A DNA stretch of 64,000 nt, taken from the NCBI RefSeq assembly GCF_013388945.1, contig NZ_JACAEH010000021.1, positions 95,309 through 159,308 on the forward strand, read 5' to 3'. The notes below the pieces were generated by a model. The model saw only the letters and a list, made by a program, of their open reading frames with translations. It searched no databases and was not told the origin of the DNA. A program made the translations under genes and the position numbers. Positions 4,799 through 64,000 of this stretch are shown piece by piece (position 1 is the first letter of the stretch; every line of letters begins with the position of its first letter). The stretch comes from Nitrososphaera sp. (GTDB lineage Archaea; Thermoproteota; Nitrososphaeria; Nitrososphaerales; Nitrososphaeraceae).

Positions 4799-5221
4799 TC
4801 AGGGCGACACGCTTACCGTGCCCAGCATCCACGGCCACGGCTCCGTGTGTACGTGGTATTCGCCGGCTTTGCCAAACGTGCACCCAAACGACTCGCCCGG
4901 TCCGACGAGCTTTTCAGTCCCTGACGGTGTGACGTTTGCACTGTAACCCTGGGAGGGCTCGCATGCAGGCTCGATGACTATGTTGACGGCCACGACTTCC
5001 TTGTTTTCCCACAATACAAAGTCGCCGGCCTCTATGGACGCCGTGGCAGGCTCAAAGTTTGCCTCTGCCGCGGACGCGCCCTCCGGGATGGTTACTGCCT
5101 GCCCTTTCATAGAAGCTATCCTGTAGATTGGAGGCTCGTCGGCCCAGATGGCAAACACCGCGATAAACGCCGCCCCTGCGACAAGGCCTGCTGCAACCGG
5201 CGCGGCAACGTGCACAGTCAT
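4799..5221 (-). CDS. Membrane-anchored cupredoxin-like protein
   Basis: The 140-residue protein has an N-terminal hydrophobic anchor or signal (residues 5-26) and a plastocyanin-like beta-sandwich. The C-terminal copper loop is visible: Cys114, His123, His125 and Met132 in CTFGKAGEYHVHTEPWPWM. The upstream first histidine of type 1 copper sites is not obvious; Asn80 (VAVNIV) sits where HTV is usual, so the site may be altered. Thaumarchaea use many small blue-copper proteins in place of cytochromes for extracytoplasmic electron transfer, which fits this role, but copper binding should be regarded as probable only. Confidence 0.7.
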   Translation of the reverse strand: MTVHVAAPVAAGLVAGAAFIAVFAIWADEPPIYRIASMKGQAVTIPEGASAAEANFEPATASIEAGDFVLWENKEVVAVNIVIEPACEPSQGYSANVTPSGTEKLVGPGESFGCTFGKAGEYHVHTEPWPWMLGTVSVSP

Positions 5222-8663: not shown

Positions 8664-8754
8664 GGGCCCGTAGCTCAGCCAGGTAGAGTACCGGACTTTT
8701 AACTCACTCGAGAAAGAAATCCGGTTGTCTCGGGTTCGAATCCCGACGGGCCCG
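8664..8754 (+). tRNA. tRNA-Lys (TTT), intron-containing
   Basis: Acceptor GGGCCCG/CGGGCCC pairs fully with discriminator G. The T-arm is TCGGG-TTCGAAT-CCCGA. The anticodon stem CCGGA/TCCGG encloses 24 nt instead of 7, which resolves to loop CTTTTAA (anticodon TTT) plus a 17-nt intron at the canonical position after base 37. CCA is not encoded. Confidence 0.93.
8702..8718 (+). other. Archaeal tRNA intron (17 nt)
   Basis: Seventeen extra bases lie between tRNA positions 37 and 38 of tRNA-Lys. The flanking sequence can form the bulge-helix-bulge cut by the archaeal splicing endonuclease. The exact boundary could slide by one base because of flanking A residues. Confidence 0.8.
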
Positions 8755-8819
8755 CTCACCTGATTGCAAAAACGGCAGAAACACGATGTTTTTAAGCTCA
8801 CGCCTGCAACCCTGCATGA

Positions 8820-61392: not shown

Positions 61393-61767
61393 TCAGAGAA
61401 ACTTTATCCTGAGCGACTTTATCCTCCTGACATGGCCGTCGCCCTTCTTGCCCTCTCCAGCCTCTTTTACGAAATTGAAGGTGAACCTGCCCCGCAAGGT
61501 GGTCCCGCGCTCAAACGTGACCAGAGCGGTTGTTTCGTCGTCGCTGCCGTCTTCAAACCTGATATCACGCTTTAGACCGGCATTTGCCATGAGGACAATC
61601 TTGAGAAAGCTCTCTATTGCCTCCTTGCCGCGCAGCCCTTCTTTCTCGTTGCTGAAAGGCTCGTACACCACCGGCTCGTCGTCGGTAAACAGGTCGAGGA
61701 TGCCGTCTGCATCCTTCTTTGTTATCAGGTCAAAATAGCGGCGGACTGTCTCCTGCCCCGTCAGCAT
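61393..61767 (-). CDS. SnoaL/NTF2-like fold protein
   Basis: The 124-residue protein has the NTF2-like cone fold pattern: ETVRRYFDLITKKDADGILDLFTDDEPVVYEPFS, EAIESFLKIVL and a strand-rich second half ending RIKSLRIKFL. Could be a lyase/isomerase or binding protein. The ATG is at 61767. A minus-strand TATA-like CTTAAATAG (about 61837-61845) with an upstream TGCACTGTACAC element, also found before amoA, precedes it. Confidence 0.75.
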   Translation of the reverse strand: MLTGQETVRRYFDLITKKDADGILDLFTDDEPVVYEPFSNEKEGLRGKEAIESFLKIVLMANAGLKRDIRFEDGSDDETTALVTFERGTTLRGRFTFNFVKEAGEGKKGDGHVRRIKSLRIKFL

Positions 61768-61849: not shown

Positions 61850-61861
61850 GTGTACAGTGCA
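61850..61861 (-). promoter_or_regulatory. TGCASTGTACAC element, copy 1
   Basis: Read on the minus strand, TGCACTGTACAC lies four bases before the TATA-like CTTAAATA that precedes the NTF2-like gene. One of four copies in 1.6 kb; the others are at 61909, 62454 and 63393, and copy 4 is upstream of amoA. Confidence 0.55.
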
Positions 61862-61908
61862 CGGCAAGAATTGGGAGCCCGCGTCTAGTGTCGAATGCAG
61901 GTCTGCCA

Positions 61909-61920
61909 TGCAGTGTACAC
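61909..61920 (+). promoter_or_regulatory. TGCASTGTACAC element, copy 2
   Basis: Exact TGCAGTGTACAC, six bases before a TATA-like CTTAAGTG at 61927. The TATA is weak and the downstream gene starts about 135 bases later, so its role is less sure than copies 3 and 4. Confidence 0.5.
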
Positions 61921-62061
61921 GCGCTGCTTAAGTGCAATGAGACGCAAGCCGGCAGAGTAGGCAGATAGACATGGTGCAACTGGCCCTGCCCCGCGGCTCT
62001 CTTCTCCCAATGGCCGGCCGCTCTATGTGGGCAGGGCCCTCCACCTCGACTGTCCTGGGAT

Positions 62062-62445
62062 GTGCAAACTTTGTTGTCTGAGTTTTGCAGGCAGGTCCTC
62101 GAGCTTGACCCCGGCATAAGGTTTGCAGGAGTCGCCAACAAAAATGGCCGGCTTGCAGCCGCGCGGTACCGCAAGGGCGTGGTTCCGCTGCTAGACAAGA
62201 GCCGGCTAGAGCTCTCAGTCGTCCAGTCGGCAATCAGGTTCAATACAAGGGAAAGCTTTGAGCAGGAGCTTGGAAAGGCGCTTTATACGATAACGACCTA
62301 TGAAAGAGTGAAGCGGGCCACCGTCCCCATCCACGACGACAAGAAAAGGCTGCTCTTGGTTTCGTTTGACATAACTGCAAGGCCGGGTCCCATCATAAGA
62401 AAAAAGATACTGCCGCTCATAGAAGAAAAACTCCGCGGGGCCTGA
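62062..62445 (+). CDS. Thaumarchaeal small conserved protein (paralogue B)
   Basis: The 127-residue protein (GTG start) is a paralogue of the gene at 22316: RFAGVANKNGRLAAARYRKGVVPLLDKSR and a matching C-terminal half (ERVKRATVPIHDDKKRLLLVSFDITARPG). Both look like roadblock or profilin-type domains of unknown function, with duplicates common in Nitrososphaera by recollection. The GTG start is provisional. The upstream copy 2 element may drive it. Confidence 0.65.
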   Translation: MQTLLSEFCRQVLELDPGIRFAGVANKNGRLAAARYRKGVVPLLDKSRLELSVVQSAIRFNTRESFEQELGKALYTITTYERVKRATVPIHDDKKRLLLVSFDITARPGPIIRKKILPLIEEKLRGA

Positions 62446-62453
62446 TTTTGCAA

Positions 62454-62465
62454 CGCACTGTACAC
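62454..62465 (+). promoter_or_regulatory. TGCASTGTACAC element, copy 3
   Basis: CGCACTGTACAC (one base from the consensus) lies six bases before TATA-like GATAAATA at 62472, which is 30 nt upstream of the small membrane protein ATG at 62503. The same spacing is seen before amoA. Confidence 0.55.
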
Positions 62466-62502
62466 TTGGTGGATAAATAATCAGCTGCACAATCGCATGG
62501 CG

Positions 62503-62703
62503 ATGGGCAGAATAAACGGCGAAAACGTCGCAGGCGCGGCGTTCCTTGTCTTTTCAGGACTGTTTCTTGCGGCAAGCATGGTAAACCCCGTGATCGCCTC
62601 TGTGAGGGTGGTCTTTTACGTGCTGGTCGCGGCAGGCATAGCTCTCCTGTTCCTTGGCTACAGGACCTACCGGCACGAGCAGCAGGTCGCAGTGATAGAA
62701 TGA
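62503..62703 (+). CDS. Small two-TM membrane protein
   Basis: The 66-residue protein (ATG at 62503 or 62497) has two membrane helices: VAGAAFLVFSGLFLAASMV and VVFYVLVAAGIALLFLGY, and a short basic tail. Starting at 62503 fits the TATA-like GATAAATA 30 nt upstream, the same distance as in amoA. Family not recognised. Its promoter carries the TGCASTGTACAC element. Confidence 0.6.
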   Translation: MGRINGENVAGAAFLVFSGLFLAASMVNPVIASVRVVFYVLVAAGIALLFLGYRTYRHEQQVAVIE

Positions 62704-62785
62704 TTTTAAAATGCACTGAAATTCCTTGCAGAGAATTACAATGCAGTCTCACTTTTTATTAACATGCTCCCGGGCAAGCCCTGAC

Positions 62786-63130
62786 ATGTCCATCGAAGTT
62801 GTAAAAGCTTATGATGAAGTCGTCGCGCAGCTGCAGGAAAGACACAGAAACGTCGACCCGTTCCTGCTGTTAAAATCGTCGATGCTCACGCGCAAATACC
62901 CCCAAGAGAAAAAGCAGAGGTTCTGGCTGAGCGTCCAGTACCAGCACGATGCAAGCGAGGAAGAGGTATCGCGCAGGATACAGCACATGGTCGGCCTGAT
63001 ACCTGTAAGCCACGGCCACGGGCGCTATGAGATAGTGCTTCAGACCGGTCTTGACACCGTGCTTGCGATGGCGAGCCTTGACGGCATCGACACTGTCGCA
63101 GGCGAGGTCTACCCGAACGCGTACGGCTAG
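62786..63130 (+). CDS. Conserved-looking hypothetical protein (114 aa)
   Basis: The 114-residue protein (ATG at 62786; the track extends 20 codons upstream of a TATA-like TTTTTATTAA) is hydrophilic with an alpha-beta profile: VVKAYDEVVAQLQERHRNVDPFLLLKSSM, EEEVSRRIQHMVGLIPVSHGHGRYEIVLQTGLDTVLAMAS. I do not recognise a family. Position two genes upstream of amoA suggests a link to the amo region only by proximity. Confidence 0.65.
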   Translation: MSIEVVKAYDEVVAQLQERHRNVDPFLLLKSSMLTRKYPQEKKQRFWLSVQYQHDASEEEVSRRIQHMVGLIPVSHGHGRYEIVLQTGLDTVLAMASLDGIDTVAGEVYPNAYG

Positions 63131-63333
63131 TCGTCTTCTCTGCGCGTCACGCCTATCACAAGAAAGTCGCGCAGCTCCAGGTCCACGCGCTTGCCTATCA
63201 GGGGCCTGAGCTTGCCGAGGTTTACTTCTTTTTCGCACTCATAGTCTTCCTCCACGGATCTGCGGAGGATCCTTACAGTCTTGCTTTTTGCGTCGACTGA
63301 AACCAGCCTGCCTCTTGCGCCTGAAAGTATCAT
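63127..63333 (-). CDS. Small basic hypothetical protein (68 aa)
   Basis: The 68-residue basic protein (ILSGARGRLVSVDAKSKTVRILRRSVEEDYECEKEVNLGKLRPLIGKRVDLELRDFLVIGV) has an SH3/OB-like beta pattern. Could be a small nucleic-acid-binding protein. Its stop overlaps the preceding hypothetical protein stop by four bases and it is divergent from amoA. No family recognised. Confidence 0.6.
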   Translation of the reverse strand: MILSGARGRLVSVDAKSKTVRILRRSVEEDYECEKEVNLGKLRPLIGKRVDLELRDFLVIGVTRREDD

Positions 63334-63392
63334 GCGTCATGCGCTGGAAGAGCCGGAATAAAGCCTTAACAGATGTGAAGGGAAAAATGCAA

Positions 63393-63404
63393 TGCAGTGT
63401 ACAC
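63393..63404 (+). promoter_or_regulatory. TGCASTGTACAC element, copy 4 (amoA promoter)
   Basis: Exact TGCAGTGTACAC, six bases before TATA-like CTTATATT at 63411-63418, which is 30 nt before the amoA ATG. Its core GTGTACAC is itself palindromic, as expected for a dimeric regulator. Confidence 0.6.
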
Positions 63405-63440: not shown

Positions 63441-64000
63441 ATGGTTTGGCTAAGACGTACGACACACTACCTCTTCATGGTGGTGGTGGCAGTCAACGGA
63501 ACACTGCTGACCATCAACACAGGAGACTACCTGTTCTACACAGACTGGATGTGGACATCCTTCGTGGTATTCTCAGTCGGCCAATCTACGATGCTTTTGG
63601 TCGGTGCGATATACTACATGCTGTTCACAGGCGTACCAGGAACGGCCACGTACTATGCAACCATCATAACCATCTACACGTGGGTTGCAAAGGGCGCGTG
63701 GTTTGCGCTGGGCTACCCATACGACTTCATCGTATCGCCTGTGTGGATACCATCCGCGATGCTGTTGGACCTCACGTACTGGGCGACAAGACGCAACAAG
63801 CACGCTGCCATACTCATTGGCGGTTCGCTGGTTGGCCTATCCTTCCCGCTGTTCAACATGGTCAACCTGCTACTGGTGCGCGACCCGCTTGAGGTAGCCT
63901 TCAAGTATCCGAGACCGACGCTGCCAGCGTACATGACGCCTATAGAGCCCCAGGTAGGTAAGTTCTACAACTCGCCTGTCGCTCTGGGATCTGGAGCTGG
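63441..64000 (+). CDS. amoA: Ammonia monooxygenase subunit A (AmoA), 3'-truncated by window
   Basis: The frame is open from ATG 63441 to the window end, giving 186 of about 216 residues: MVWLRRTTHYLF, NGTLLTINTGDYLFYTDW, TYYATIITIYTWVAKGAWFALGYPYDF, and TPIEPQVGKFYNSPVALG. This is archaeal AmoA, with several membrane helices. The ORF track omits it because it lacks a stop; the two ORFs listed there overlap it in other frames. AmoA is part of the membrane copper monooxygenase that oxidises ammonia to hydroxylamine. The amoB/amoC neighbours lie outside the window. Confidence 0.97.
   Translation, partial: MVWLRRTTHYLFMVVVAVNGTLLTINTGDYLFYTDWMWTSFVVFSVGQSTMLLVGAIYYMLFTGVPGTATYYATIITIYTWVAKGAWFALGYPYDFIVSPVWIPSAMLLDLTYWATRRNKHAAILIGGSLVGLSFPLFNMVNLLLVRDPLEVAFKYPRPTLPAYMTPIEPQVGKFYNSPVALGSGA

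What the first reader, a model, noticed from the sequence alone, without database searches (positions are those of the whole stretch)
61850..63404. A 12-bp element (TGCASTGTACAC) at fixed distance from TATA boxes, including that of amoA
Four copies occur in 1.6 kb: before the NTF2-like gene (61850, minus), at 61909, before a small membrane protein (62454) and before amoA (63393). Three have exactly 6 bp, one 4 bp, between the element and a TATA-like octamer, and in two the octamer begins about 30 nt before the ATG. The GTGTACAC core is palindromic. It is a candidate regulatory site linking amoA to neighbouring uncharacterised genes, occupying the BRE-proximal activator or repressor position.
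Basis: partly seen in the sequence, partly recalled or inferred. Interest (0 to 1): 0.78.

Follow-up and report, generated by a model that had tools for sequence, protein, structure and literature searches.

The report
Shared promoter switch of ammonia-oxidising archaea
The short DNA word is real: it is half of a 25-base palindrome that sits at a fixed distance from the start signal of many stress-type genes and small RNA-like genes in ammonia-oxidising archaea, but it is not a general amoA switch, because only one extra copy of amoA in this genome carries it.

Summary
The 12-mer is the TATA-proximal half of a 25-bp palindrome, about GWNTRCASTGCA-W-TGCASTGYANWC. Among 194 sites in Nitrososphaera, TATA-like pentamers pile up 7-9 bp after the element, and ATG about 30 nt after TATA, as in leaderless mRNAs. 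Divergent genes often share one palindrome. Targets resemble a stress/persistence regulon: Usp, CBS, Hsp20, ADH, nitroreductase, a NirK-like protein, SnoaL/NTF2-like proteins, small HTH proteins and ORF-less hairpins. In Nitrosopumilaceae 29 of 30 genes for an ArsR-like winged-helix protein, chosen by protein similarity, carry the element at the same spacing: the best regulator candidate there.

The amoA link is local. The element lies only at a second amoA copy; canonical amoA promoters of this genome and of its relatives lack it, as do amoC and both ammonium transporters. Most likely it is a dimeric-activator site upstream of the BRE. Binding, direction of control and signal are untested.

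The parts
61850..61866 (-).
   Evidence: 23.2 bits
61836..61843 (-). TATA octamer CTTAAATA, 6 bp from copy 1
   Evidence: TATA score 8.9
61393..61767 (-). SnoaL_2/NTF2-like protein (PF12680), target of copy 1; ATG 76 nt after the TATA start
   Evidence: 14 of 17 related loci in the genus have the element upstream
61904..61920 (+). Element copy 2 (TGCCATGCAGTGTACAC)
   Evidence: 26.3 bits
61927..61934 (+). TATA-like octamer CTTAAGTG, 6 bp from copy 2
61952..62060 (+). Predicted ORF-less structured RNA or structured leader of the DUF6659-like gene (62062-62445): stem 61982-61991/62029-62038
   Evidence: 77% identical to the homologous N. viennensis transcript region; the 10 stem pairs are kept, two with compensatory changes; the whole fold alone is no better than shuffles
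62449..62465 (+). Element copy 3 (TGCAACGCACTGTACAC)
   Evidence: 24.4 bits
62472..62479 (+). TATA octamer GATAAATA, 6 bp from copy 3
62503..62703 (+). Small membrane protein MGRINGENVAG..., target of copy 3 (likely leaderless, ATG 31 nt after the TATA start)
   Evidence: orthologues carry the element at the same place
63388..63404 (+). Element copy 4 (TGCAATGCAGTGTACAC, exact consensus)
   Evidence: 28.3 bits
63411..63418 (+). TATA octamer CTTATATT, 6 bp from copy 4
63441..63998 (+). amoA, second copy (amoA2), cut by the contig end; ATG 30 nt after the TATA start
   Evidence: PF12942 E 9e-109; the other copy is on C12

Best explanation
The 12-mer is the TATA-proximal half-site of a 25-bp palindromic operator (about GWNTRCASTGCA-W-TGCASTGYANWC), conserved in ammonia-oxidising Nitrososphaeria. 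A dimeric winged-helix regulator probably binds it; its proximal half abuts the BRE position, exactly 6 bp from the TATA octamer, and it most likely recruits TFB/TBP to promoters with no A-rich BRE. One palindrome between divergent genes can serve both. In Nitrososphaera it governs a scattered, partly clustered regulon of stress/redox/persistence genes and ORF-less hairpin transcripts; the window's second amoA copy belongs to it, canonical amoA does not. Shown: palindrome, spacing, conservation, target list, ATG position. Inferred: protein binding, activation rather than repression, and the stress signal.
For: Nine of nine exact matches have TATA at 6 bp. Extended motif <=3 mismatches: 167 sites in 7 genomes against 18 for the reversed pattern. 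TATA-like pentamers start at offsets 7-9 in 98 cases among 194 sites, against 0-4 at other offsets; ATG at columns 52-54 in 75, background about 4 per column; mirror half visible (G at -8 in 90/140, T at -5 in 99/140). Divergent pairs with sites on both strands offset by 8 bp. Orthologues keep the site. In Nitrosopumilaceae 29 of 30 ArsR-like winged-helix genes chosen by protein carry it at the same spacing (background about 0.016 per 35-bp stretch). Target families. The spacer is not A-rich (A 0.21 against 0.29 in a small control set). Position rule: TrmB-family motifs upstream of BRE/TATA activate, downstream repress (PMC4158304; OxsR in PMC9426492).
Against: No binding, expression or start-site data. 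The winged-helix family with the site is not found at E<=1e-20 in Nitrososphaera, whose 27-38% homologues lack the site, so the regulator in this genus is unidentified. The A difference in the spacer is small. The stress reading rests on family names. The PWM was trained on sites it then counted, although columns and spacing were tallied from element matches alone.
Confidence: 0.7

Rival explanations
1. Repressor operator: the same dimer binds the palindrome and blocks TFB access, so the genes are off until a ligand releases it.
For: The proximal half abuts the BRE, so a bound dimer could hinder TFB; many archaeal winged-helix regulators repress, and the closest fold of the candidate is the heat-shock regulator Phr (2p4w, TM 0.74). 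The candidate's own gene carries the site, as autorepressors do.
Against: Repressor sites usually overlap or follow TATA/start, and upstream sites activate (PMC4158304). The rigid 6-bp spacing to TATA is not needed for repression.
Confidence: 0.2
2. Extended core-promoter element read by a particular TFB/TBP paralogue (sigma-like promoter class) rather than by a separate regulator.
For: Invariant spacing to TATA, non-A-rich BRE position, two sub-classes of the element (TGTACAC and TGCANWC) with different target types.
Against: A 25-bp palindrome with a mirrored far half and shared bidirectional sites fit a dimer better than a TFB; a winged-helix gene carries the site almost invariantly in a sister family. 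Not tested directly.
Confidence: 0.1
3. Dedicated amoA/ammonia switch.
For: An exact consensus site with a perfect TATA lies before one amoA copy; a NirK-like gene and a P-II gene also carry sites.
Against: Absent from canonical amoA promoters in the genus and family sets examined, from the other amoA copy here, and from amoC and both Amt loci; most targets are Usp/CBS/NTF2-type or ORF-less.
Confidence: 0.04
4. Chance repeats or mobile-repeat copies without regulatory function.
For: Copies cluster in 20-30 kb islands.
Against: Reversed-pattern controls near zero, fixed TATA and ATG registers, and most copies share no flanking sequence beyond the promoter.
Confidence: 0.01

Closest known systems
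TGM (TATCAC-N5-GTGATA) of Thermococcales with Tgr/TrmBL1 (PMC4158304)
   Same: Palindromic site shared by a dispersed metabolic regulon; upstream of BRE/TATA at activated promoters; read by a winged-helix regulator
   Different: Unrelated sequence; TGM also occurs downstream of TATA in repressed genes, whereas here the upstream position at a fixed 6 bp is the rule
OxsR of Haloferax volcanii (PMC9426492)
   Same: Single winged-helix regulator, semi-palindromic motif upstream of BRE/TATA, stress regulon
   Different: CG-rich motif; here TGCA-based. The Nitrosopumilaceae candidate has an invariant Cys28, but equivalence to OxsR C24 was not tested
N. viennensis motifs of the 2020 copper-limitation study (PMC7785015)
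   Same: Upstream motifs shared between co-regulated genes in the same genus
   Different: Their consensus TTCSGSMTTTGWACYANT and RATTTAAABATAGATTTAAATAATAAS do not resemble this palindrome
DosR/OsdR dormancy regulons of Actinobacteria (PMC5069765; composition partly from general knowledge)
   Same: Similar target types: Usp, CBS, Hsp20, nitroreductase; palindromic operator
   Different: Different domain of life and operator; no DosR-type response regulator was looked for

Membership tests
Archaeal upstream activator site (TGM/OxsR type) | Palindromic or repeat motif shared by several promoters | tested here: met
Archaeal upstream activator site (TGM/OxsR type) | Lies directly upstream of BRE/TATA | tested here: met
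   6 bp to the TATA octamer
Archaeal upstream activator site (TGM/OxsR type) | Bound by a regulator and needed for activation | not testable with these tools
   needs footprint and reporter or mutant
amoA regulatory element | Conserved at amoA promoters of relatives | tested here: not met
ArsR/TrmB-type winged-helix regulators (candidate protein of Nitrosopumilaceae) | Pfam profile over its cut-off | tested here: not met
   HTH_20 23.1 of 27 bits, TrmB 21 of 25.6 bits
ArsR/TrmB-type winged-helix regulators (candidate protein of Nitrosopumilaceae) | Winged-helix fold | tested here: met
   model pLDDT 78.9; best match Phr 2p4w, TM 0.74; ArsR/SmtB proteins follow
DosR-type dormancy regulon | Target families Usp, Hsp20, CBS, nitroreductase, ADH together | tested here: met
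   (composition only)
DosR-type dormancy regulon | DosR/DosS two-component pair and hypoxia/NO response | not tested
   no search made; needs expression data

The most novel reading that the evidence does not exclude
The same promoter element drives a family of hairpin RNAs, and one of them, next to the second amoA copy, is an antisense regulator of amoA. Its 5' arm pairs with the start-codon region of canonical amoA mRNA over 16-19 positions in two genomes, and its other arm repeats the first bases of amoA2 (GGTTTGGCTAAGAC). A stress regulator would then tune ammonia oxidation through an RNA and a spare amoA.
Probability: 0.15. Interest if true: 0.85.

Novelty: new member of a known kind. Interest (0 to 1): 0.62.

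Why it matters
Almost nothing is known of gene regulation in ammonia-oxidising archaea. A 2023 study found no obvious shared promoter motif for the amo genes of N. viennensis (PMC10030591). Here is an operator found across two families of these archaea, with an exact register to TATA, a target list and, in one family, a regulator gene that almost always carries the site. It gives a ready set of promoters for start-site mapping, pull-down and reporter tests, and warns that amoA copies within one genome may be controlled differently.

Tried and rejected
Rfam scan of the loci with the amoA-like hairpin: only a tRNA. First idea that the element is amoA-specific: dropped. Idea that the Nitrosopumilaceae winged-helix protein is the regulator in Nitrososphaera as well: no homologue at E<=1e-20 in the genus and the weak homologues lack the site. 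My early note that canonical amoA follows amoC was wrong; it follows a 306-aa ORF and a small membrane-protein ORF. GTGTACAC as the palindrome: replaced by the longer one after the mirror-column count. Whole-fold energy of the 61952-62060 RNA: not below shuffles, so only the covarying stem is claimed. A PDB sequence search with the candidate found nothing. Six literature searches for the motif, the regulon or a second amoA gave no earlier description, in an open-access library only.

Full report
OBSERVATION. All have exactly 6 bp to an A/T-rich octamer: CTTAAATA, CTTAAGTG, GATAAATA and CTTATATT. The 4-bp case becomes 6 bp when the octamer is read as GATAAATA. No further copy with <=1 mismatch lies in the other 62 kb, and Markov-simulated windows give 0.05 sites of this strength per 64 kb, none with TATA. 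In the whole genome (1.99 Mb, 31 contigs) GCASTGTACAC occurs 9 times, the reversed pattern never, and all nine are followed at 6 bp by a TATA-like octamer.

THE ELEMENT IS LONGER. Contexts show a 5' extension TGCANN. With TGCAATGCASTGTACAC at <=3 mismatches, seven Nitrososphaera genomes give 167 sites against 18 for the reversed pattern. The TGTACAC end is one variant; TGCANWC is the commoner one across the genus. Counting columns of sites chosen by the element alone: TATA-like pentamers start 7-9 bases after the element in 98 cases among 194 sites and hardly elsewhere; ATG stands at columns 52-54 in 75, about 30 nt after the TATA start, as for leaderless mRNAs; and the upstream flank mirrors the element (G at -8 in 90 of 140, T at -5 in 99, purine at -4 in 104). 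Many divergent gene pairs share one palindrome, with hits on both strands offset by 8 bp and a TATA on each side.

DISTRIBUTION. In 300 genomes of the class, TGCAWTGCASTGYANWC with <=1 mismatch occurs 14-37 times in the more complete Nitrososphaera genomes with control 0 (one at 95% completeness has 8), a few times per genome in other Nitrososphaeraceae and in Nitrosopumilaceae, and close to the control level in most other families of the class. G014, G015 and G011 are taken to be N. viennensis, N. evergladensis and N. gargensis from their sizes only (2,527,938; 2,954,373; 2,833,868 bp). Sites cluster in islands of 20-30 kb there.

TARGETS. In this genome: Usp, CBS-domain proteins, ADH, HSP20, nitroreductase, M50 peptidase, pyruvate:ferredoxin oxidoreductase subunit, P-II (weak site), rubrerythrin-like, SnoaL/NTF2-like, small HTH proteins, and a multicopper protein closest to copper nitrite reductase (TIGR02376 E 1e-36, below the curated cut-off). 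Orthology supports function: 14 of 17 NTF2-like loci and 5 of 5 orthologues of the small membrane protein have the element with TATA upstream (one of the five weak, 10.5 bits), while 7 distant paralogues of the latter have none.

ORF-LESS TARGETS. Several sites, mostly of the TGTACAC type (15 of 29 ORF-less against 8 of 73 for other types, Fisher p 3e-5; loci were partly chosen by that type, and the ORF call is crude), precede stretches without ORF that fold into long GC-rich hairpins. The one in the window (61952-62060) is 77% identical to its N. viennensis counterpart; ten stem pairs are kept, two by compensatory change. It could be a separate RNA or the leader of the DUF6659-like gene.

AMOA. 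Canonical amoA promoters in the genus and family mostly carry an A-rich BRE and TTTATATA, and lack the element. This genome has two amoA copies: C12 (no element) and C15, the window copy, which has it. Two relatives, G012 and G007, also have a second amoA; there the element lies about 75 bp upstream but on the opposite strand, before a hairpin RNA. In N. viennensis the window's neighbourhood (DUF6659-like and MILSGARG ORFs, four exact elements) has no amoA, so amoA2 probably joined an existing element-rich site; this is inference. C15 and C12 both end inside amoA; the C27 continuation (VPMAALGAKL) matches second copies and C29 (VPIAALGAKL) a canonical one, so C15 likely joins C27, which carries an element and the hairpin RNA (inferred). 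amoC and both ammonium transporter loci have no element.

REGULATOR. In Nitrosopumilaceae many sites lie between a cupredoxin and a 110-115-aa winged-helix gene. Taking 30 such genes by protein profile rather than by motif, 29 have the element and TATA at the same spacing with ATG 29-31 nt (in four, by the start chosen, 20 nt) after TATA; the background rate is about 0.016 per 35-bp stretch, although orthologues are not independent. The model (pLDDT 78.9 for the best, the five models vary) is closest to Phr of Pyrococcus furiosus and ArsR/SmtB proteins. The protein has no homologue at E<=1e-20 in Nitrososphaera. Candidates there are the small HTH proteins whose own genes carry the element.

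MECHANISM. Upstream placement, rigid spacing and lack of an A-rich BRE favour recruitment of TFB/TBP by a dimer, as proposed for Tgr/TrmBL1 and OxsR when their motif lies upstream of BRE/TATA (PMC4158304; PMC9426492). The spacer argument is weak: A 0.21 against 0.29 in 49 control promoters. Direction of control and signal are not shown.

LEAD. The hairpin RNA near amoA2 holds GGTTTGGCTAAGAC, identical to the amoA2 start, and a 5' arm that pairs with the canonical amoA start: duplex energy below all 1000 shuffles in G000 and G007, not in G012 (92 of 1000), and 12 of 1103 other ORF starts pair as well in G000. An inverted duplication of the amoA start explains it equally well.

NOVELTY. The kind (palindromic upstream site, winged-helix regulator) is known in archaea; this site and regulon were not found described in the open literature searched.

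Noticed in passing
L007 minus strand (G000 C27 end); L032 around 4800-4920 minus; L033 minus: Hairpin RNA behind an element promoter holds GGTTTGGCTAAGAC, identical to the start of the second amoA copy, and an arm that pairs with the canonical amoA start codon region.
   Followed up: partly
window 63441-64000 (contig end) and G000 C12, C27, C29: Two amoA copies; both contigs break at the same repeat inside amoA, so the 3' end of the window copy is not assembled.
   Followed up: partly
L228-L229, L231-L232, L234-L236, L239-L240: Islands of 20-30 kb in which many genes each have the palindrome promoter: Usp, CBS, ADH, NTF2-like, small zinc-ribbon-like proteins.
   Followed up: partly
L252-L255, L260-L264, L323-L352: Nitrosopumilaceae winged-helix gene with near-invariant element, in several genomes divergent from a cupredoxin gene; invariant Cys28.
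   Followed up: partly
L141, L142, L144, L146, L149, L151, L155: Several different hairpin families follow element promoters, four elements within 2 kb in N. viennensis at 2.102-2.105 Mb.
   Followed up: partly
window 8664-8755: ARAGORN calls a tRNA-like gene with a four-base anticodon (taac), perhaps an intron-containing or degenerate tRNA.
   Followed up: no
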